Source: Desulfuromonadales bacterium (lineage in GTDB: Bacteria > Desulfobacterota > Desulfuromonadia > Desulfuromonadales > JAHYIW01). Taken from it: a stretch of 52,907 nt of DNA. Below are positions 1-25,575 of this stretch, piece after piece. Within the stretch, counting starts at the first letter, position 1; every line of letters starts with the position of its first letter. The stretch covers positions 1-52,907 of the forward strand of contig JARGFI010000016.1 of the NCBI GenBank assembly GCA_029210745.1, given 5' to 3'. The notes under the pieces were generated by a model, which made no database searches, was not told the DNA's origin, and worked only from the letters and a program-made list of their open reading frames with translations. The translations under genes and the position numbers were made by a program.

Positions 1-167
1 TGTGGCTGTTTGACCAGAAAAAAGATGAAATCGGCAAAGGTAGCGGGGTTTGTGGGTTGGGACGAATTTACCCTGGCTTGCATCGTTTCCCTGTTGCAAA
101 ACTTGCCGGTCACAACTATGATGAAACGCTGAAACATTCACCCACACTTTGCCAGAAGGAGACTGTC

Positions 168-485
168 ATGCCGCTGAAATCAATGATCCTGACCCTGACC
201 ATCGTTATTTTCTCGGTGGCGTTGGCCTTTGCTGTTCCCGCCGGTCGCCAACTCGAATTCACCAAAAGTGCCATGGGGAAAGTCACCTTCGACGGCAAAC
301 TGCACAACGCTGTCGCTAAAGGCTGCACGGAATGTCACAACAAGGACACCTTCCCGAAAATGAAACAGGGAACGGTCGAGATCAAGATGGGCGCCATTTA
401 TGCCGGCAAGCTCTGCGGCATCTGCCACAACGGCGAGCGCGCTTTCAGCGCCAAGGGCAACTGCACCAAATGTCATAAACGTTAG
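168..485 (+). CDS. periplasmic triheme c7-type cytochrome
   Basis: Small exported multiheme cytochrome of 105 residues, probably a periplasmic electron carrier. A signal peptide (MPLKSM, a hydrophobic stretch, cleavage near AFA-VPAG) is followed by three CxxCH haem sites in order: CTECH, CGICH and CTKCH, plus an upstream KLHN histidine that can act as a distal ligand. The layout fits the c(7)-type triheme family common in Desulfuromonadota. I start at the ATG at 168 because AGAAGGAG lies just upstream and the signal peptide begins there. The same frame stays open back to the window edge, and the first 167 bases show no other convincing gene. The partner reductase cannot be told from the neighbours. 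Confidence 0.88.
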   Translation: MPLKSMILTLTIVIFSVALAFAVPAGRQLEFTKSAMGKVTFDGKLHNAVAKGCTECHNKDTFPKMKQGTVEIKMGAIYAGKLCGICHNGERAFSAKGNCTKCHKR

Positions 486-739
486 ACCGGCACCTGCGTT
501 TCGAGCGACAAAGACCAGAAACGAGTCGCGATCTTATTCTGTGGTCGGTGAACCCGGCATGATCTGTGGAAGGTGGGACAATATAGAATGCCCCCCCTGA
601 CGCACTACTTTATGACCGACAAAGGTCTTCGTGCTGGCAAAGCGGTGGTTCTTTTGCTAAATTCCCTCCTGACATGAGATTCGCTGCTTTATTACGGTGA
701 CCGGTTGTCGGCTCGTTTGCAGGAATCACAGGGGGATGT

Positions 740-3700
740 ATGACCGAGATGCCGCGCACTGACACCGCTGTCGTTGATTTTATCCACCGCTGGGCGGCCT
801 CCGGCGCGGCCGAACGCGCCAACTACCAACTCTTCCTTTCCGAACTCTGCGATCTCCTCGAAGTCCCGCGCCCCGATCCCACCCGCCCCGACGACCGCGA
901 CAACAACTATGTCTTCGAACGCAGCGTCACCTTCCGCCACGGTACCGGCCTGACCAGCAACGGTCGCATCGATCTCTACAAACACGGCTGTTTCGTTCTG
1001 GAGGCCAAGCAGGGGAGCGACAAAATCCCCCCCACCCCCCCTTTGACAAAGGGGGGAGTGAGCGCAGCGAGCGGGGGGATTTTGGTTCGGGAAGTTGACA
1101 GCGACTGGCTCTCCGGTCGACGCGGCACCGCCGTGCGCGGCACCAAGGGGTGGGATGTGGCGATGCTCAAGGCCAAGGGGCAGGCTGAGCAGTACGCCCG
1201 CGCCCTCCCCGTCGCCGAGGGGTGGCCGCCCTTTCTCGTCATCGTCGATGTCGGCCACGCCATCGAGCTCTACAGTGAATTCTCCTGCACCGGGAAGTCC
1301 TATCTCCCTTTTCCTGATCCGCGCGCGCACCGCATTCTTCTCGGCGATCTCGTCGATCCCGAGATTCGCGCCCTGCTGCGTGTGGTCTGGACCGAGCCGC
1401 ACGGCCTCGATCCGGCTAAACGGAGCGCTAAGGCGACCCGCGAGATTGCCGCCAAACTCGCCCGCCTCGCCAAGTCGCTGGAGTCGTCGGGGCAGACGCC
1501 GGAGCGGGTCGGCAACTTCCTCAAGCGCTCCCTCTTCACCATGTTCGCCGAGGATGTCGGGCTGATTCCGGCCCGCAGCTTTACCGCCTTGCTGGAGAGT
1601 TTGCGCGGCGATATCGACAACTTCCCGCCGCTGCTGGAATCGCTGTGGACAACGATGCGCGACGGCGGCTTCTCGCCGGTGCTGCGTGAAAAGTTGCTCC
1701 GTTTCAATGGTGGCCTCTTTGCCGAGACCGAGGCGCTGCCGATCAGCGAGATTCAGCTCAATCTTCTCATTGACGCCGCCAAGGCCGACTGGCGCGATGT
1801 CGAACCGGCGATCTTCGGCACCCTGCTGGAGCGCGCCCTCGACCCCACCGAACGCCACCATCTCGGTGCCCATTACACGCCGCGCGAATACGTCGAGCGT
1901 TTGGTTCTGCCGACGGTGGTCGAACCGCTGCGCGCCGATTGGGATGCGGTGCTGGCGGCGGGGGTGACGCTGGCCGGACAGGGGGATCAAGCCGGAGCCA
2001 TCGCTCTGGTTAAGGAGTTTCACCACCAGCTCTGTTCGTTGCGGATTCTCGACCCCGCCTGCGGCAGCGGCAACTTTCTTTACGTGACTTTTGAACATCT
2101 CAAGCGTCTGGAGGGAGAAGTTCTCAATGCCCTCGAAGGGTTCGGCGAAGACCAGACGTCGCTGGAGCTCGCCGGTCTCACCGTCGATCCGCACCAGCTC
2201 CTCGGCATCGAGGTCAATCCCCGCGCCGCCGCCATCACCGACATGGTGTTGTGGATCGGCTATCTGCAATGGCATTTCCGCACCCGTGGCCATGCGCTGC
2301 CGCCCGAGCCGGTAATCAAGAAGTTCCACAACGTCGAGTGCCGCGACGCGGTGCTGGCTTATGACGGGGTGGAACCGGTGGTCGATGGCGACGGGAAGGC
2401 GGTCAGCCGTTGGGATGGGCGGACGACGAAGACGCATCCGGTGACGGGGGAGCAGGTGCCGGATGAATCGGCGCAGGCGGTGGTGTTGCGTTATCTGAAT
2501 CCGCGTCAGGCCGAGTGGCCGGCGGCGGATTTTGTGGTGGGGAATCCGCCGTTTATCGGCGCTTCGACCATGCGGCAGGCGCTCGGCGACGGCTACGTTG
2601 AGGCACTGAGAAACGTCTGGAAGGAAGTGCCGGACAGCGCCGATTTCGTCATGTTCTGGTGGCATCATGCCGCCGCGTTGACGCGCAGCGGCAAGGTGCG
2701 GCGCTTCGGTTTCATCACCACCAACAGTTTGACGCAGACTTTCAACCGCAAGGTGATCGAACAGCACCTCGTAGGGGCACCCCTTGCGGGTGCCCATGGG
2801 CAAGGCGGGCACCCGCAAGGGGTGCCCCTACAAATCGCTTTTGCCATTCCCGATCATCCTTGGGTCGATGCGGCGGATGGCGCGGCGGTGCGGATTGCCA
2901 TGACCGTCGGGCGAGTGGCGCGGAATGAAGACGTGGGAACTCTGGTCACGGTGACCGATGAGCGGGGAGGAGACGGGGAAGGGGTTTTTGTCGAACTGTC
3001 TACGCAGCGGGGGATTCTGCATGCGGATCTGACGGCGGGGGCGAATGTAGTCGGAGCCGGGAGACTTATTTCCAATTCAGGAATTAGCAATAAGGGATTT
3101 GAACCGGGGAATGAAGGTTTCATTGTTTCAGCCGAGCAAGCAGCCCGTCTCGATAATAATGCTCCAATTAAACCTTACCTAAACGGAAGAGACTTAACAG
3201 ACCGTCCTCGTGGCGTGAAAGTGATCGATCTTTTCGGATTCAAAGCAGATGAAGTGCGTTCTCTTTTCCCCGCAACGTATCAGTGGCTATTGGAACGAGT
3301 AAAACCTGAGCGAGAACAAAATCGAGATATAAAACTTCAGCAAAATTGGTGGCTCCATCGTCGTCTACGTGTGGACTTACGTGACATGTTGTCAGGTCTT
3401 CCTCGCTTCATTGCTACGGTTGAAACAGCCAAACATCGGGTATTCCAGTTCCTTTTATCAAAAGAATCTCCAAGCAACCTACTGATTTGCATCGCCAGCG
3501 ACGACGCCTTCCATTTCGGTGTCCTTTCCAGTCGACTGCACGTCGTCTGGGCACTGGCAGCCGGTGGAAGGCTTGGTGTTGGCAACGATCCCCGATACAA
3601 CAAAACTCGCTGCTTCGAACCCTTCCCTTTCCCCGCCGCCAGCGACGACCAGAAGCAGATCATCCGCGCCCTCGCCGAGCAGCTCGACGCCCACCGCAAG

Positions 3701-4360
3701 CGCCAGCAGGCGCTCCATCCCGACCTGACCCTGACCGGCATGTACAACGTGCTGGAGAAGTTGCGGGAACTGCAACCCCCCTCAATCCCCCCTTGTCAGG
3801 GGGGAGGCTCTGCTCCCTCCCTTGTCAAGGGGAGGGCCGGGGAGGGGTTAACCGCCAAAGAGAAAACGATCCACGAACAAGGACTGGTCGCCATCCTCAA
3901 ACAGCTCCACGACGAACTCGACGCCGCCGTCTTTGCCGCCTACGGCTGGCCCGCCACCCTCAGCGACGCCGAAATCCTCGAACAGGTCGTCGCCCTCAAT
4001 CGCGAACGGGCACGAGAAGAAGAGCAAGGCCTGATCCGCTGGCTACGCCCCGAATACCAGGCAGCAGGACACATCGCCCCCTCCCCGACCCTCCCCCTCC
4101 AGGGGAGGGAGCAAAAATCACCCCTCCACCCAGCGGGGGGAGGCCGGGAGGGGGGAGCCAAACTCCTCTGGCCCAAAACCCTCCCCGAGCAAGTCCAGGC
4201 AGTCCGCGCCGCCCTCGCCAACGCCGCCGCTCCGCTCACCGCCGAAACCCTCGCCCGCACCTTCCAGCGCGCCCGCGCTGACAAGGTTGGCGAACTCCTC
4301 GAAACCCTGGCCGCCCTCGGGCAGGTGCGGGAAGTGGAGCCGGGGAGATTTGTGGTGTAA
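740..4360 (+). CDS. MmeI-like type IIL restriction-modification enzyme
   Basis: Single-polypeptide endonuclease plus adenine methyltransferase of 1206 residues (MmeI itself is about 919). An N-terminal PD-(D/E)XK-like site is visible as D78 with E88-A-K90 in [17 protein letters not shown]. The methyltransferase core has motif [10 protein letters not shown] near residue 438 and motif IV NPPF near 602, followed by the target-recognition and C-terminal regions. In this family one chain binds DNA, cuts, and methylates one strand. A G-rich Shine-Dalgarno (731-736) precedes the ATG. The extra length is partly explained by four GC-rich palindromes translated in frame as linker-like peptides. No separate R, M or S gene is adjacent, as expected for type IIL. 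Activity and target site cannot be read from the sequence. Confidence 0.85.
1022..1083. repeat. palindromic element A inside the MmeI-like gene
   Basis: Outer arms AAAATCCCCCC (1022-1032) and GGGGGGATTTT (1073-1083) are perfect complements. An inner hairpin pairs CCCCCCTTT (1036-1044) with AAAGGGGGG (1048-1056). It is translated in frame as [20 protein letters not shown], directly after the predicted nuclease E-A-K motif. This resembles the GC-rich palindromes (PPLTKGG-type peptides) scattered through many bacterial genomes. Confidence 0.8.
2771..2831. repeat. palindromic element B inside the MmeI-like gene (25-bp perfect arms)
   Basis: Positions 2771-2795 and 2807-2831 are perfect reverse complements over 25 bp (arm starts GTAGGGGCACCCC), with an 11-base loop at 2796-2806. 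It is translated in frame as [20 protein letters not shown] between the methyltransferase core and a conserved-looking segment [12 protein letters not shown]. It is the strongest hairpin in the window and has no U-tract. Confidence 0.9.
3774..3849. repeat. palindromic element C inside the MmeI-like gene
   Basis: Composite of two hairpins. CCCCCC (3787-3792) pairs with GGGGGG (3799-3804), and CCCTCCCTT (3815-3823) pairs with 3827-3836 with one bulged G. Outer AACCCCCCTC (3774-3783) roughly matches GAGGGGTT (3842-3849). Translated in frame as [20 protein letters not shown] and flanking residues, just before [12 protein letters not shown]. Confidence 0.75.
4077..4154. repeat. palindromic element D inside the MmeI-like gene
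   Basis: Outer CCCCCTCCC (4077-4085) pairs with GGGAGGGGG (4146-4154). An inner hairpin pairs CCCTCCCC (4089-4096) with GGGGAGGG (4102-4109). Translated in frame as an [20 protein letters not shown]-type peptide within the C-terminal variable region. Confidence 0.75.
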
Positions 4361-4363
4361 ATC

Positions 4364-4392
4364 GTAGGTCGGGTTAGCGTTGCGTAACCCGA
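4364..4392. repeat. short palindromic repeat downstream of the MmeI-like gene
   Basis: CGGGTTA (4370-4376) and TAACCCG (4385-4391) flank an 8-base loop, preceded by GTAGGT. It matches the widely dispersed GTAGGTCGGGTTA...TAACCCG intergenic repeat type. It begins 4 bases after the stop codon and could protect or trim the mRNA 3' end. There is no U-tract. Confidence 0.7.
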
Positions 4393-4581
4393 TGAGCAAC
4401 TTTGTGAAGAATATAAGGGGAGGTTAAATAGCGAACAAGACCAGACCGAAATCCAAACAGGAAATAGCCGCTGATTTTTATCTTGCTTTTCTGTAAACAC
4501 TCATGGTAGAAAGACGAATCAAAGTAAGTTTGTGTAGATTTTTTGTCGCCCATCAGACTGACAAGGTGTCAGTTTGGACCC

Positions 4582-4612
4582 AAAACACAGACCCGGCTGG
4601 GTGTGTGTTTTT
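4582..4612 (+). promoter_or_regulatory. terminator-like hairpin in the cold-shock gene leader
   Basis: AAAACACAGACCC pairs with GGGTGTGTGTTTT around loop GGCT (one mismatch), ends in a T-run, and is followed by CATTTTGGG. It lies about 65 bases before the cold-shock start codon. The other cold-shock gene has a similar arrangement. The rest of the 4361-4676 gap holds the repeat at 4364-4392 and, with weak support, a TTGCTT (4483) - 18 bp - TAGAAA (4507) promoter. Attenuation is an inference. Confidence 0.55.
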
Positions 4613-4676
4613 CATTTTGGGCGGTCGGCGTCTGCACAACAAAAAAGTTCTCAAAAAGAGAACGTGGAGAAAAAAG

Positions 4677-4877
4677 ATGGCAGAAGGTACAGTAAAGTGG
4701 TTTAACGACGCAAAAGGTTTTGGTTTTATCGAGCAGGACAATGGACCCGATGTGTTCGTTCATTTTTCCGAAATCCAAGGCGATGGTTTCAAATCTCTCG
4801 TTGAGGGAGACCGCGTGACTTTTGATGTCACTCAAGGTCAAAAAGGTCCGCAGTCGGCCAACGTGCGCAAAATCTAA
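4677..4877 (+). CDS. CspA-family cold-shock protein
   Basis: 66-residue single cold-shock domain (OB fold) that binds single-stranded RNA and DNA. RNP-1 is KGFGFI and RNP-2 is VFVHF, both intact, and the length matches the family exactly. The start [10 protein letters not shown] follows GTGGAG; an in-frame ATG further upstream would add a non-conserved tail and is rejected. The gene sits behind a long structured leader and is followed by an intrinsic terminator. The product is 66 residues like the second cold-shock protein at 12691-12891 and very similar to it. Likely an RNA chaperone or antiterminator. Confidence 0.95.
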
Positions 4878-4895
4878 GAGATTTCGCATATATGT

Positions 4896-4933
4896 AAAAA
4901 GAGCCCCGCGGATTTTCGTGGGGCTCTTTTTTA
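4896..4933 (+). terminator. intrinsic terminator after the cold-shock gene
   Basis: GAGCCCCGCG (4901-4910) pairs with CGTGGGGCTC (4917-4926, one G-U) around loop GATTTT, followed by TTTTTT. Confidence 0.9.
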
Positions 4934-5000
4934 CTCGCCCTTCCCCGCCCCGTTCACAACTCCATACTCCGGAAATTTTCCACCTGAAAGGGATTATCAC

Positions 5001-5162
5001 ATGGCAAGAAAACCCAACTATGGTTTTGAAAAACGTCAGAAAGAGATTGCTAAAAAGGCCAAAAAAGAAGAAAAGAAAATGCGCAAAGCCGAAGACAGCA
5101 TGATCGAGGATGCTGAACTGGCTGTCAACGAAGCTCCCGTCACCGAACAGGAAAAAGAGTAA
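5001..5162 (+). CDS. small Lys/Glu-rich conserved protein, function unknown
   Basis: 53-residue protein beginning MARKPNYGFEKRQKEIAKKA, with a highly charged first half rich in Lys and Glu (likely a helix or nucleic-acid-binding tail) and an acidic C-terminus. GAAAGGGA (4985-4992) precedes the ATG. Small proteins with this YGFEKRQKE pattern are, as I recall, frequent in Desulfuromonadota and related groups. It follows the cold-shock gene but a terminator separates them, so it probably has its own promoter. No function can be assigned. Confidence 0.75.
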   Translation: MARKPNYGFEKRQKEIAKKAKKEEKKMRKAEDSMIEDAELAVNEAPVTEQEKE

Positions 5163-5515
5163 CCAGGATCTTTTCACCCTCCTTGTTTATTGCCTACATC
5201 GGCACAATCCGTTGTCTTTCCTGAAACAACTGTGACCGCATGGCGGAGCAGGCCCCTTGCACCAAAAAGGAGCGAATGTTCCCCGCGCAGTGAAAGCAAT
5301 CCCCCGCCATCACCGCAGGCCACCCACCACACCGCTGATTTCCCACTACCAAACCGATCACAGTCGTGTTATCATCTACCATTGATCGCATAACGTCGTT
5401 TTACCGACGAGCTCCGATCTTGAAAGAATTTGAATATATGCAGGATTAATGGTATCTTTTACGCGGATTTCCGGGCTGCTGTAATAAACTTCTCGCCCAA
5501 AATTTTCCTGGATCA
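5163..5515. other. 353-base gap with only a doubtful ORF
   Basis: A minus-strand frame at 5194-5391 (65 aa, MRSMVDDNTTVIG...) is open, but I do not recognise it, see no good ribosome site, and give it about 0.2. The right end carries a candidate promoter for the next gene. I see nothing else. Confidence 0.4.
5430..5458 (+). promoter_or_regulatory. candidate sigma-70 promoter for the cNMP/CBS/DUF294 gene
   Basis: TTGAAT (5430-5435), 17-bp spacer, TATCTT (5453-5458). It would start transcription near 5465, about 50 bases before the gene. Confidence 0.4.
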
Positions 5516-7444
5516 ATGGCGACGCACATGAGTGTTATCAAGCTACTTCAAGAGACCGAACCATTCAACCAGCTTCCGCAAGAGGTGTTTGCACAGATAC
5601 GTGCAGCCGCACAACTGGAGGTTTTCCCCAAAGGGATTAACATCTTCAGCCAGAACGCCAAACCGACCGGGTTTCTTTACGTTATCAAGGGAGGGCTGGT
5701 CGAAGTCATCGTTCATACCCCCGGAGGCGGGGACATGGTCGTCGATTACCGGCGTGAAGGCGACATTTTCGGTGGCACGCCCATTTTTACCGGCGAACCC
5801 TATACCGGCGGCGCCCGCACCGTGAAGGCGACCGAGTGTTATCTGATCCCTGAAAGCATTCTCCAGCAGGTCAGCAAGAACCATCCACAACTGCGCGACT
5901 ACTTCACCCGCATGGTTCTCTCGCGCGTCAAGAACCTTTACTCCGATATCGTCACCGAACACAGCCGTAAAGCACTCACCCAGATGGAGGCCTTTCCGTT
6001 TCAGAAGCGTCTCTCGGAGATCATGTCGGCCCCGGTCGAAACGTGTGGTTCCGGCGCCACCGGTGAACAGATCGCCATACAAATGGTGGAAAAAAATGTT
6101 GGCTCGGTGGTGGTGGTTGACGAATACAACGCCCCGATCGGCATTGTCACCGAACGTGATCTGATCGTTAAAGTGATTGCAACCGAAAAAATCGACCGCA
6201 AGATGATTCAGGCTCACGAGTTGATGAGTGAGCATATCTATTCACTGCCCCCGGACAGCTTTATGTATGAAGCCATGTCATACATGATCGGTCACCGCAT
6301 TAAATATCTGCCGATCGTGGACCGCGATGAAATCGTCGGCATCGTCACCCAGCGCGATCTGATGCGCTTTCGCAGTCAGAAAGCGATGCTGTTGGTCGGC
6401 GCGATCAACGACACCAATGACATTGCTACGCTGGCGCGCATAAAAACCGAAATCGCTACCGTTGCCCAAGGGCTGCTGTCGGAAACCCGCAGCACTCCGG
6501 AAGTGCTGGAAATAATCTCCTATATCCACCACGGTATCATCCGCCGTGTCTACGATCTGTGCCATGCCGAAATGCTTGCCGAGGGCTACCAGCAGCCTGA
6601 CATCCGCTTCGCTTTCATGATCATGGGCAGTGGCGGACGTCGCGAAATGCTCCTCGGCCCGGATCAGGACAATGCCTTTATCTACGAGGATGTCCCGGAC
6701 GAACGCATGGCGGAGATCGACGCCTTCTTCGTTCCTTTCGCTGACAAGATTGTCACTGCGCTGGAAAAGGTCGGTTACCCCTTATGCAATGGCGAAGTCA
6801 TGGTCAACAACCCCGAATGGCGCGGGCGGATCAGCGACTGGCACAACCGGATCCACAAGTGGGTCAACGCTCCGGAACCGCAGCGGGTAAGGAACTCATC
6901 GATTTTCTTTGATTTCACCGCCCTGGTCGGAGACAGCAAGCTGGCGACGGACCTGCGAACGATCGTCAATCTGACCATTCGTCAATTTCCGGCGTTTCTT
7001 TTCCACATGATGTCCCTCGACCTGAGTTACAAGGTTCCCATCGGTCTGCTCGGAAGATTTATTCTCGATAAAACAGAAAAACACAAAGGGCATATTTCTG
7101 TGAAGCAGGGGGGAAGTATCTATATCGTGGACTGCGTGCGCATGTTTGCCCTTGAGCACGAACTGACTGAGTTGACCACCCTTGATCGCCTGACGGCACT
7201 GGTGAAGCGCAATGTGTTCGCCCCGGAAACGGCCGAACACATCCGCGCGGCCCTCGAAGCCCTCAACTTCCTGCGTCTGCGCAATGAAATTACACTGGCA
7301 CAGGAAGGCAAAATCCCGACCCACTTCCTCGACCCCTACGCGCTGTCAAAACCGGAGCAGGATCTGCTCAAGGAAGCGCTTCATGCTGTCAGCAAATTGC
7401 AGGATTCAACCAAGCGCCATTTCGGTCGCGGTCAGATGGGCTAA
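5516..7444 (+). CDS. cyclic-nucleotide-binding / CBS-pair / DUF294 nucleotidyltransferase-like protein
   Basis: 642-residue cytoplasmic signalling protein. Domains in order: cNMP-binding (about 20-125), tandem CBS (about 170-290, with VTERDLIVKV and VTQRDLMRF), a GlnD-like nucleotidyltransferase domain (about 320-450, motif GSGGRREMLLGPDQDN) and the DUF294 C-terminal domain (about 470-630). The family is thought to link nucleotide sensing with a nucleotidyltransferase-type activity, but substrates are unknown. Start is ATG 5516; ATG 5528 (MSVIKLL) is equally possible because neither has a strong Shine-Dalgarno. It stands alone, 53 bases before rsgA. Confidence 0.85.
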   Translation: MATHMSVIKLLQETEPFNQLPQEVFAQIRAAAQLEVFPKGINIFSQNAKPTGFLYVIKGGLVEVIVHTPGGGDMVVDYRREGDIFGGTPIFTGEPYTGGARTVKATECYLIPESILQQVSKNHPQLRDYFTRMVLSRVKNLYSDIVTEHSRKALTQMEAFPFQKRLSEIMSAPVETCGSGATGEQIAIQMVEKNVGSVVVVDEYNAPIGIVTERDLIVKVIATEKIDRKMIQAHELMSEHIYSLPPDSFMYEAMSYMIGHRIKYLPIVDRDEIVGIVTQRDLMRFRSQKAMLLVGAINDTNDIATLARIKTEIATVAQGLLSETRSTPEVLEIISYIHHGIIRRVYDLCHAEMLAEGYQQPDIRFAFMIMGSGGRREMLLGPDQDNAFIYEDVPDERMAEIDAFFVPFADKIVTALEKVGYPLCNGEVMVNNPEWRGRISDWHNRIHKWVNAPEPQRVRNSSIFFDFTALVGDSKLATDLRTIVNLTIRQFPAFLFHMMSLDLSYKVPIGLLGRFILDKTEKHKGHISVKQGGSIYIVDCVRMFALEHELTELTTLDRLTALVKRNVFAPETAEHIRAALEALNFLRLRNEITLAQEGKIPTHFLDPYALSKPEQDLLKEALHAVSKLQDSTKRHFGRGQMG

Positions 7445-23574: not shown

Positions 23575-23586
23575 GAGGCATTGCCG

Positions 23587-25575
23587 GTGATCCGACAATT
23601 AGCGATTCAACTTTTAGTGCTGCTGTTCTGCGGCAGCATCTGCACCGCAGCTTTTGCCGCGGACAAGGTGAACCTCGACTTTCAGGATGTCGAGCTGACC
23701 AAATTGATTCAGGTCATCAGCGAGATGACCGGGCGCAACTTCATTTACGACGACAAGGTGCGCGGCAAGGTGACGATCATTTCGCCTCAGCCGATGAGTG
23801 TCAACGAGGCCTACCAGGTTTTTTTAACGGTCCTCAACGTCAAGGGGTTCACTGTCGTTCCGTCCGGTACCGTCAACAAAATCGTTCCAGCGTCGTCGGC
23901 ACGCGAAAACACCCTGCCGACGATGGAAAACAAAAAGCATGGCGAACAATATGTCACGCGCCTGATTCCACTGCAGAATATCGATGCCGGGTTGATGGCA
24001 AGCACTGTTCTGACCCCGTTGATCCCCAAAACCGGCAACATTGTCGCTTACGCCCCATCGAACATGCTGATCATCACCGATACCGCGTCCAACATTGAGC
24101 GGCTGATGAAAATCATCGCGGAACTCGATATCTCAAGTGCCACCGAGGCGCTTGAAGTGGTGACCCTGCAACACGCTTCGGCTACCGATGTCGCACAAAT
24201 CTGCACCCAGGTGATCACCCAGATGGCGGCGACACCGAAAAGAGGGCGGGCGGCCAGGAATGTGCAGACCGCAGGGGGCAAGGAAACCAGTCGCATCATC
24301 CCTTATGAACGCACCAATGCGTTGATTATTCTTGCCACCAGCGATGATCTGCTGACCATTAAAAATCTGATTGCACAGCTTGATCAGGTACCGGAACAGA
24401 CGCGTTCGAATATCAAGGTCTATTATCTTGAAAACGCCGATGCCGAAACGTTGGCGAAAACCCTCAACGAAATCCTTACCGGGATCGTCGGGCAGGCACC
24501 CGCCGGGCGTGCCGTTAAGCCGGGGCAACCGGCCACGCCGACATCACAGCCGGTGACTATCACTGCCGACAAACCGACCAACTCGCTGATCATCAACGCG
24601 ACCCCGGAGGACTACGAAACGTTGCAAGGGATCGTTGCCAAACTCGATGTCAAGCGCAAGCAGGTCTTTGTTGAGGCGCTGATTCTGGAACTGTCGATGG
24701 GAGCCACGACAGATCTGGGCCTGAGCTTGCAAGGAGCCTACGCGCTGGACAAACACGGCGAATATGTTGTCGGCGCCTCACTGAACAGAAAGGAAGGCGA
24801 TCCGGATCTGATCACCAACCCGACCAGCCTGTTGACCAGCGCAGTCAACGGAGTTTTGCTCGGCGGTATGTTTAACCAGATTAAATTACCCGATGGCACA
24901 ACCATTCCGGCGCTCTCGGCACTGATTGGCCTATCTGAGGGCGGCAACGACGTAAACGTCGTTTCCGCCCCACGCTTACTCGCAACAGATAATGAGGAAG
25001 CTGAGATCGTTGTCGGTGAAAATGTGCCGGTCATCACAGGACGCCTCTCAGATAGTAGTGGTGCGAGCTCCGGGCTGACGCAAAGTGTTTCAATCGAACG
25101 CAAAGATGTCGGACTGACATTGCGATTCACTCCACAGATCACTGAGGGAGATCAGGTGCGTCTCAATGTCTACCAGGAAATAAGTGATGTCGTTAAAAAG
25201 AAAGACAGCATCGTTTCTGTTGACCAAGCAGGTCCGACCTACACCAAGCGCATGGTGCGCAATACCGTTATCGCCCAGAATGGTCAAACGGTGGTTCTCG
25301 GCGGACTGATAAAAAATAATATTGTAAAGGGCGAAATCAAGGTGCCACTGCTGGGCGACATCCCCTTGCTGGGGTGGTTGTTCAAAAGAAAAACCACCAC
25401 CGAAAGCAAGACCAATCTGCTGGTTTTTATCACCCCCAAAATTATCAAAAACGGCACCGACATGAATGCAGTCACCAACTCCAGCAAAAAAGCGATGGAT
25501 GATTTCCAGAACAACGGCCTTAATCCAACGCAGACCATCAACACGGCCCCCCCGGAGCCACGTAGCGACCAATGA
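23587..25575 (+). CDS. gspD: type II secretion secretin GspD
   Basis: 662 residues. Signal peptide (LLVLLFCGSICTAAFA-AD), N0 to N3 domains (N0 VNLDFQDVELTKLIQVISEM), then the secretin channel with VPVITG and the conserved GLTLRFTPQI and PLLGDIPLLGWLF motifs. Forms the outer-membrane channel. I choose GTG 23587: AGGAGG at 23573-23578 is 8 bases away, whereas the TTG at 23581 is only 2 bases from it. The last codon and stop overlap the gspE start (ATGA). Confidence 0.93.
   Translation: MIRQLAIQLLVLLFCGSICTAAFAADKVNLDFQDVELTKLIQVISEMTGRNFIYDDKVRGKVTIISPQPMSVNEAYQVFLTVLNVKGFTVVPSGTVNKIVPASSARENTLPTMENKKHGEQYVTRLIPLQNIDAGLMASTVLTPLIPKTGNIVAYAPSNMLIITDTASNIERLMKIIAELDISSATEALEVVTLQHASATDVAQICTQVITQMAATPKRGRAARNVQTAGGKETSRIIPYERTNALIILATSDDLLTIKNLIAQLDQVPEQTRSNIKVYYLENADAETLAKTLNEILTGIVGQAPAGRAVKPGQPATPTSQPVTITADKPTNSLIINATPEDYETLQGIVAKLDVKRKQVFVEALILELSMGATTDLGLSLQGAYALDKHGEYVVGASLNRKEGDPDLITNPTSLLTSAVNGVLLGGMFNQIKLPDGTTIPALSALIGLSEGGNDVNVVSAPRLLATDNEEAEIVVGENVPVITGRLSDSSGASSGLTQSVSIERKDVGLTLRFTPQITEGDQVRLNVYQEISDVVKKKDSIVSVDQAGPTYTKRMVRNTVIAQNGQTVVLGGLIKNNIVKGEIKVPLLGDIPLLGWLFKRKTTTESKTNLLVFITPKIIKNGTDMNAVTNSSKKAMDDFQNNGLNPTQTINTAPPEPRSDQ

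What the first reader, a model, noticed from the sequence alone, without database searches (positions are those of the whole stretch)
1022..4154. Four different GC-rich palindromes translated in frame inside one MmeI-like restriction gene
Elements A-D (1022-1083, 2771-2831, 3774-3849, 4077-4154) are hairpin-forming, differ in sequence, and none breaks the 1206-codon frame. Each reads as a Pro/Gly-rich linker and sits between blocks that look conserved in the family. Four in-frame events in one gene are unlikely by chance. They resemble intergenic repeats and recall the in-frame palindromic elements of Rickettsia genes. Possible explanations: selection for tolerated insertions, a mobile palindrome that prefers restriction genes, or hairpins that limit expression of a toxic enzyme.
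Basis: partly seen in the sequence, partly recalled or inferred. Interest (0 to 1): 0.75.

Follow-up and report, generated by a model that had tools for sequence, protein, structure and literature searches.

The report
Palindromes repeatedly inserted into restriction gene
Short self-complementary DNA repeats appear to have landed, without breaking the reading frame, in the same few flexible loops of one bacterial DNA-defence gene in several unrelated groups of bacteria, so this gene looks like a hotspot that tolerates such insertions.

Summary
Confirmed in substance. The 1206-codon MmeI-like (type IIG) gene at 740-4360 carries four in-frame repeat-like blocks. A and B are strong hairpins (fold z -5.0, -9.8); C folds no better than shuffles (-1.25), D slightly (-2.05), but C is clearly a dispersed repeat. 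B is a GTAG-tagged REP dimer.

They are insertions: in the syntenic orthologue of a same-genus genome, D is empty, C holds a different palindrome and B is the same element inverted (A's region is deleted there). Of 79 homologues scanned, 13 carry 16 strong palindromes; 15 of 16 fall in the windows around A-D (14.5% of the protein), largely unrelated sequences in four groups besides the window's own; a clade-specific insertion at residue 1072 is palindromic in 0 of 20. A structure model puts A-D in poorly structured loops.

Best explanation: opportunistic, recurrent insertion and turnover of genomic palindromes in permissive loops. In-frame REP and Rickettsia palindromes are known; a convergent hotspot in one restriction gene family appears new. 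Preference for restriction genes is suggested, not proven; hairpin regulation has no support here. In 33 viral or plasmid homologues I saw no clear insert at A-D (one short Ala-rich stretch passes the same threshold).

The parts
740..4360 (+). MmeI-like type IIG restriction-modification gene, 1206 codons, host of the four elements
   Evidence: differences from L014 and L013 are concentrated at third codon positions (0.40 and 0.54 against 0.16-0.21 at positions 1 and 2), as under purifying selection
1022..1083 (.). Element A: C/G-tract palindrome with core CCCCCCTTTGACAAAGGGGGG and outer arms, read in frame just after the nuclease EAK motif; 93% identical over 61 bp to the element at site C of L014
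   Evidence: (z -5.02)
2771..2831 (.). Element B: GTAG-tagged REP dimer, two 25-nt units in opposite orientation round an 11-nt spacer, in a methyltransferase loop between a helix and a strand; same site but inverted in G001
   Evidence: (z -9.82)
3774..3849 (.). Element C: mosaic of CCCCCCTTGTCAGGGGGG-like and CCCTCCCTTGTCAAGGGGAGGG-like units, between two helices of the C-terminal part; near-full-length copies (82-84%) outside called ORFs at C45 and C61, a 61-base match at C31, and a 93% identical copy at the same site of L013
   Evidence: (z -1.25)
4077..4154 (.). Element D: CCCTCCCC/GGGGAGGG tract block in the variable linker before the C-terminal domain; site empty in G001 and L014
   Evidence: (z -2.05)

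Best explanation
The four blocks are copies of short palindromic repeats (B a GTAG-tagged REP dimer; A and C other C/G-tract repeat families with copies elsewhere in the genome; D most likely of the same kind as C) that inserted one by one into surface loops of an MmeI-like type IIG enzyme. Insertions that shift the frame, bring a stop or hit a folded element are lost; those in a few permissive loops survive as Pro/Gly-rich linkers and then turn over by swap, inversion and loss. The same loops are permissive across the family, so largely unrelated palindromes accumulate at the same sites in unrelated bacteria. SHOWN: in-frame position, repeat nature of A-C, presence, absence, swap and inversion between syntenic orthologues, clustering of sites, predicted loop location. 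INFERRED: that the protein remains active, that the insertions are near-neutral, and how the elements move.
For: Same-genus syntenic orthologue (84.5% DNA identity over window 2750-5876): D empty, C replaced by an A-type palindrome, B at the same site but inverted. A and B absent from L013 and L014; L014 has a 93%-identical copy of window A at site C, while its gene DNA is 78-79% identical over the two long aligned stretches. 16 strong palindromes in 13 of 79 homologues, 15 of 16 in the windows round A-D (175 of 1206 residues), P 4e-12, or 9 of 10 after collapsing related inserts by eye, P 2.5e-7. Two insert families tested are host repeats: 24 further matching rows for the left arm of the L069 insert (40 of 56 candidates scored); 39 and 27 rows in the L025 and L036 genomes, both strands and the gene copies themselves included. 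Negative control: the insertion at residue 1072 is palindromic by both tests in 0 of 20. Model: segments under pLDDT 50 overlap all four elements; A, C and D hold no helix or strand, B touches a helix end and a strand start. Copies elsewhere: B-type 5 of 5 further own and 6 of 6 further G001 places outside called ORFs; A-type in frame in cobB/cbiA-like, cbiD and a restriction-type helicase gene.
Against: C folds no better than shuffles, D little; D has one partial copy only. Copy numbers are low (1-6 further matches), unlike typical REPs. No target duplication or other insertion footprint was established. None of the 8 Y1-transposase loci examined, of 20 matches, has an A-D palindrome beside it. 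In L024 the two inserts are inverted copies of each other and no third place was found in a complete genome, which fits within-gene copying better than a pool of dispersed repeats. Only the window has a palindrome at site A. 23 viral and 10 plasmid homologues show no clear insert; by the bare rule one (L178, score 24, site D) counts, so the clustering was not replicated in a second sample. Low pLDDT at the inserts is partly built in, since few rows of the alignment cover them.
Confidence: 0.8

Rival explanations
1. The palindromes are targeted to, or selectively retained in, restriction-modification genes: the element's mobility or its effect on a potentially toxic enzyme makes these genes preferred homes.
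For: About 5-fold higher density of strong palindromes in this gene than in other ORFs of the same loci at threshold 20; in-frame palindromic blocks also in a second MmeI-like gene (C107, GTAG-tagged pair), a restriction-type helicase gene (C28) and, in G001, a gene with N6_Mtase and Methylase_S domains (L101); both copies found in the L024 genome sit in this gene.
Against: Also in cbiD and cobB/cbiA-like genes. I looked at restriction paralogues on purpose, so the list is biased. P is 0.10 at threshold 26. The locus of a third own paralogue (C50, L099) shows nothing above score 14. Viral and plasmid homologues: no clear insert among 33. B-type copies outside this gene and most C-type ones are outside called ORFs.
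Confidence: 0.15
2. The hairpins are regulatory: in the mRNA they damp translation or destabilise the message and so limit a toxic nuclease.
For: A and B fold very stably as DNA.
Against: Positions track protein loops in the middle and 3' part as much as the 5' end, C and D fold weakly, 66 of 79 homologues have no palindrome over the threshold, and the congener lacks D and has another C (that copy is broken, so this weighs little). No Rfam match.
Confidence: 0.06
3. Not insertions but native low-complexity linkers encoded by GC-rich codons.
For: D is a variable linker in the whole family; C and D are G/C tracts.
Against: Sites B and C have near-constant length in most homologues and lengthen mainly by large blocks; A, B and C match dispersed copies, many outside ORFs; one codon-shuffled copy of each of the 80 genes gave no ungapped hairpin where the real genes gave 20.
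Confidence: 0.05
4. Assembly artefact of a draft genome.
For: Draft of 118 contigs.
Against: Independent genomes carry B at the same site (G001) and C at the same site (L013), and the frame is kept.
Confidence: 0.02

Closest known systems
Intragenic GTAG- and CGTC-tagged REPs (Di Nocera et al. 2013, PMC3733652; abstract, sections 14 and 15 and passages read)
   Same: Short tagged palindromes, often dimers, found inside ORFs; dimers or grouped repeats encode 20-30 aa; two dimers in one uvrA; the paper already proposes neutral insertion in flexible linkers or loops, and notes different REPs at about the same site of recB in two Xanthomonas.
   Different: Here four inserts of at least three repeat types in one gene, restriction genes as hosts (the word 'restriction' does not occur in that paper's main text), and the same loops hit by largely unrelated palindromes in several bacterial groups.
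Rickettsia palindromic elements, RPE (Ogata et al. 2000, 2002; seen only as described in passages of PMC2229807 and PMC3733652)
   Same: Palindromic repeats translated in frame inside conserved genes; a gmk product with an insert is active, with changed substrate affinity.
   Different: Described for Rickettsia and spread over many genes; no sequence comparison was made here.
MmeI family type IIG/IIL restriction-modification enzymes (PDB 5hr4)
   Same: Domain order and fold (Z 30, rmsd 9.4, 709 aligned).
   Different: The blocks at A-D are absent from most homologues aligned.

Membership tests
MmeI-like type IIG restriction-modification enzyme | N-terminal nuclease domain, helical spacer, N6-adenine methyltransferase and target recognition domain in one chain | tested here: met
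   Pfam MmeI_N, MmeI_hel, MmeI_Mtase, MmeI_TRD all over cut-off; PADLOC PDLC03627; fold match 5hr4 Z 30, rmsd 9.4, 709 aligned, model 225-1088
MmeI-like type IIG restriction-modification enzyme | Catalytic motifs: D-X9-[15 protein letters not shown] | tested here: met
   Present in the frame; D72, E82, K84, D432, N439, N596, P597, P598 invariant in alignment A1 of 48 sequences; motif roles recalled
MmeI-like type IIG restriction-modification enzyme | Cleavage and methylation activity | not testable with these tools
   Needs purified protein or methylome data
GTAG-tagged REP (element B) | GTAG tetranucleotide beside a short stem-loop; dimers in opposite orientation | tested here: met
   GTAG-GGGCACCCCTTGCGGGTGCCC, 11-nt spacer, inverted second unit ending CTAC; definition from PMC3733652
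GTAG-tagged REP (element B) | High copy number, mostly intergenic | tested here: inconclusive
   Only 5 further core matches (one mismatch allowed) in the own genome and 6 further in G001, all 11 outside called ORFs; copy number is low
GTAG-tagged REP (element B) | REPs flank a RAYT (Y1 transposase) gene | tested here: inconclusive
   20 Y1_Tnp matches in the two genomes; in the 8 loci examined no A-D palindrome was found
GTAG- or CGTC-tagged REP (elements A, C, D) | GTAG or CGTC tag | tested here: not met
   No tag at the ends of A, C or D in the window sequence
Rickettsia palindromic element | Sequence of an RPE family | not tested
   Resemblance is of behaviour only

The most novel reading that the evidence does not exclude
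Restriction-modification genes are preferred, long-lived homes of bacterial palindromic repeats: diverse palindromes converge on the same loops because insertion there is favoured or retained by selection, for instance by adjusting the spacing of nuclease, methylase and recognition domains, so that mobile palindromes are a recurrent source of linkers in these enzymes.
Probability: 0.15. Interest if true: 0.75.

Novelty: new variant of a known kind. Interest (0 to 1): 0.5.

Why it matters
It gives a natural experiment on how non-coding palindromes become protein sequence: one gene family in which largely unrelated repeats entered the same few loops in separate groups, with empty, filled, swapped and inverted states in close relatives. 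If the enrichment in restriction genes holds, it would link repeat mobility to defence genes and make testable why palindromes turn up inside DNA-processing genes.

Tried and rejected
RAYT link: 20 Y1_Tnp matches in the two genomes, 8 loci read, no A-D palindrome beside them; L109 and L112 share another inverted repeat and L110 has a terminator-like one. RNA family: no Rfam match at gathering score in window 1-5400. Plasmid search with the L019 and L024 inserts: no match; with A: one 34-base match in a Pseudanabaena plasmid. One search is void: I put one C too many in the pattern. Second sample: 24 viral-contig loci, of which 23 with an ORF over 700 aa were scanned (several near-identical), and 10 of 61 plasmid records (one, L182, a broken ORF). 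Scores above 20 were L168 at aa 819-829 (30, in conserved sequence) and L178 at aa 1130-1140 (24, inside window D, a short Ala-rich stretch that I judge not to be an insert). My first comparison, 13 of 79 against 0 of 33, P 0.0097, left L178 out; counted by the rule it is 13 of 79 against 1 of 33, P 0.06, so I draw no conclusion from it. L162 has a tandem-repeat block at site A, L027 one at B; these are not palindromic. The first gene caller missed many flanking genes, so one search was replaced; of the 6 'other ORF' hits there several look like spurious ORFs (my judgement). Rows dropped before the census: own-genome loci and L067, whose frame is split. The alignment of the C107 product with L096/L099 was meaningless (wrong pieces) and was replaced. 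Literature listings for palindromes in type IIG or other restriction genes showed no such report among the titles and abstracts listed; most subscription papers are not held.
Full report
OBSERVATION. Window 740-4360 (+) is an open frame of 1206 codons whose product matches the MmeI domains of Pfam, a PADLOC type IIG model at 1522.7 bits and MmeI itself in the PDB by sequence and by fold (5hr4, Z 30). Folded as single-stranded DNA, A and B are far more stable than shuffles (z -5.02 and -9.82), D slightly (z -2.05), C not (z -1.25); control stretches gave -1.57 to 0.08. B is by far the strongest palindrome of the window in my scan (score 36; next 20; A 18).

REPEAT NATURE. A has other matches in the own genome at C111 (two places), C28 and C11; a core pattern with one mismatch allowed finds 6 places in the own genome including A itself, and 4 in G001, of which C30 and C16 look like chance. 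The B core is found at 5 further own places and 6 further G001 places. C has 6 further matches, three of them 61-75 bases long (C45, C61, C31), D one of 35 bases. Contexts: B-type 11 of 11 further places outside called ORFs. C-type: 4 of the 6 places were read and are outside called ORFs; a fifth (C11:12499) coincides with the A-type place in the cobB/cbiA-like gene; the sixth (C39) was not read. A-type: two places on C111 outside called ORFs, and three in frame in genes that Pfam names CobB/CbiA-like, CbiD and a ResIII helicase, the last best matched in the PDB by a type I R subunit. The congener has in-frame blocks in its cobB/cbiA-like and cbiD genes too, the cbiD one longer. G001 also has a C-like block (aa 199-226) in frame in a gene with N6_Mtase and Methylase_S domains (L101), where most PDB matches of type I M subunits stop before it or start after it (for example 134-196 and 237-384; one runs to 216). 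CbiD is gapped at the block against 1sr8.

INSERTION AND TURNOVER. The same-genus genome G001 has the syntenic gene (window 82-575 at 92.7% and 2750-5876 at 84.5% DNA identity). It is a remnant: its 5' part, matching window about 576-2749, is missing, the junction lying some 20 bases left of element B, and the match holds two stops. In what remains, site B has the same element but inverted (98.4% over 63 bases on the opposite strand), site C has an A-type palindrome instead of the window's C, and site D is empty with a native linker like that of L014. L014 carries at site C an element 93% identical to the window's A; L013 carries at site C an element 93% identical to the window's C. The genes are 78-79% (L014, two long stretches; 68% in a third, short one) and 71-72% (L013) identical in DNA. 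So the elements are younger, or better kept, than the gene around them.

CLUSTERED SITES. I aligned the window protein with 79 homologues from 80 loci (L067 left out). A gapped inverted-repeat scan, with a threshold at the 99th percentile of maxima from 400 codon-shuffled genes, gives 17 hits in 14 genes: one in the window gene (B; A, C and D are below it) and 16 in 13 homologues. Of these 16, 15 lie in the windows round A-D (about 10 residues added on each side of A-D; 175 of 1206 residues): P 3.7e-12; collapsing related inserts by eye gives 9 of 10, P 2.5e-7. All 13 homologues have at least one hit at A-D. The exception is a second hit of L025 at residue 652. An ungapped scan gave 20 hits, and none in one codon-shuffled copy of each gene. 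By record title the carriers fall in four groups besides the window's own: Rhodocyclales and kin (L019, L023, L024, L026, L033, L041, L043, L051; placement of some recalled), Gammaproteobacteria (L069, L083), Lentisphaerae (L022) and Pontiellaceae (L025, L036). The palindromes are largely unrelated, with close pairs within groups: a CGTC-tagged pair in L069, GTAG-tagged ones in L025/L036. Site A has a palindrome only in the window. In a separate count of blocks of 12 or more residues, palindromic by both tests are 6 of 8 at site B (window included), 2 of 2 at residue 627, 2 of 7 rows at site C (window's own C not among the 2), 0 of 3 at site D (its palindromes are split by the gap rule and appear) and 0 of 20 at residue 1072, a largely clade-specific insertion (one of the 20, L069, passes the laxer test).

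HOST REPEATS. The left arm of the L069 insert has 24 other matching rows in its genome, 40 of 56 candidates being scored; the L025/L036 insert family gives 39 and 27 rows, own copies and both strands included. In L024, a complete genome, the inserts at B and D are inverted copies of each other (93%) and no third place was found.

STRUCTURE. An AlphaFold2 model from 48 sequences (mean pLDDT 79.2, pTM 0.66; residue = window aa - 6) has 7 segments under pLDDT 50; four of them (92-121, 679-686, 1007-1027, 1096-1132) overlap A (89-109), B (672-692), C (1006-1031) and D (1107-1133). A follows the strand with the nuclease EAK motif, B lies between a helix and a strand of the methyltransferase and touches both ends, C lies between two helices, D before the C-terminal domain. 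Low confidence there is partly due to thin alignment cover.

RESTRICTION PREFERENCE. In the 79 loci the gene has 16 strong palindromes per 274.5 kb, other ORFs 6 per 513.9 kb, the remainder 32 per 102.1 kb, with 10 at ORF edges (P for gene against other ORFs 3.3e-4, 0.012, 0.012 and 0.10 at thresholds 20, 22, 24 and 26). Hits are not independent. A second MmeI-like gene of the own genome (C107) has a GTAG-tagged inverted pair on either side of a native segment, with net gains of 4 and 6 residues against a Trichlorobacter plasmid homologue; the locus of a third (C50) shows none above score 14. Against a preference: cbiD and cobB/cbiA, and the lack of clear inserts in 23 viral and 10 plasmid homologues. 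By the bare rule L178 counts as one hit at D; 13 of 79 against 1 of 33 is then P 0.06.

KNOWN WORK. PMC3733652 (abstract, sections 14 and 15, passages) defines GTAG and CGTC REPs, dimers, and intragenic cases, suggests neutral loops, and reports recB hit at about the same site in two Xanthomonas. PMC2229807 (passages) reviews Rickettsia palindromes in 19 reading frames and an active gmk product. My searches listed no report for restriction genes (listings only). The kind is known; a convergent hotspot within one restriction gene family is, as far as I could see, a new variant.

Noticed in passing
L094 (G001:C20), gene on the minus strand: Same-genus orthologue is a remnant lacking its 5' part; the deletion junction lies about 20 bases from palindrome B and at a short sequence shared by both sides.
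   Followed up: partly
L024 6974-7053 and 8234-8311: Two inverted, 93% identical palindromes at sites B and D of one gene; no third place was found in this complete genome.
   Followed up: partly
L097 1864-1970 (G000:C107): A second MmeI-like gene has a GTAG-tagged inverted pair in frame on either side of a native segment.
   Followed up: partly
L005, L118, L119, L121: In-frame C/G-tract palindromes in cbiD and cobB/cbiA-like genes of both congeners; the cbiD insert is longer in G001.
   Followed up: partly
L025 8829-9963 and L027 5352-6450: Inverted repeats inside ORFs that look like DUF1016 nucleases (name recalled, not tested).
   Followed up: no
window aa 627, 652 and 1072 (alignment positions): Two more palindrome sites in one or two homologues, and a largely clade-specific, non-palindromic insertion of about 22 residues; L069's version there is 79 residues long and repeat-like.
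   Followed up: partly
L168, position matching window aa 819-829: Score-30 inverted repeat inside conserved coding sequence of a viral-contig homologue, not an insertion.
   Followed up: no
window 4582-4611 and 4896-4931: Inverted repeats on either side of a small gene that looks like a cold-shock protein (recalled); the second looks like a terminator.
   Followed up: no
window 24939-24970: 32-base palindrome inside ORF 23581-25575 (score 20).
   Followed up: no
window 3-485: c7-type triheme cytochrome domain gene beside the restriction gene.
   Followed up: no
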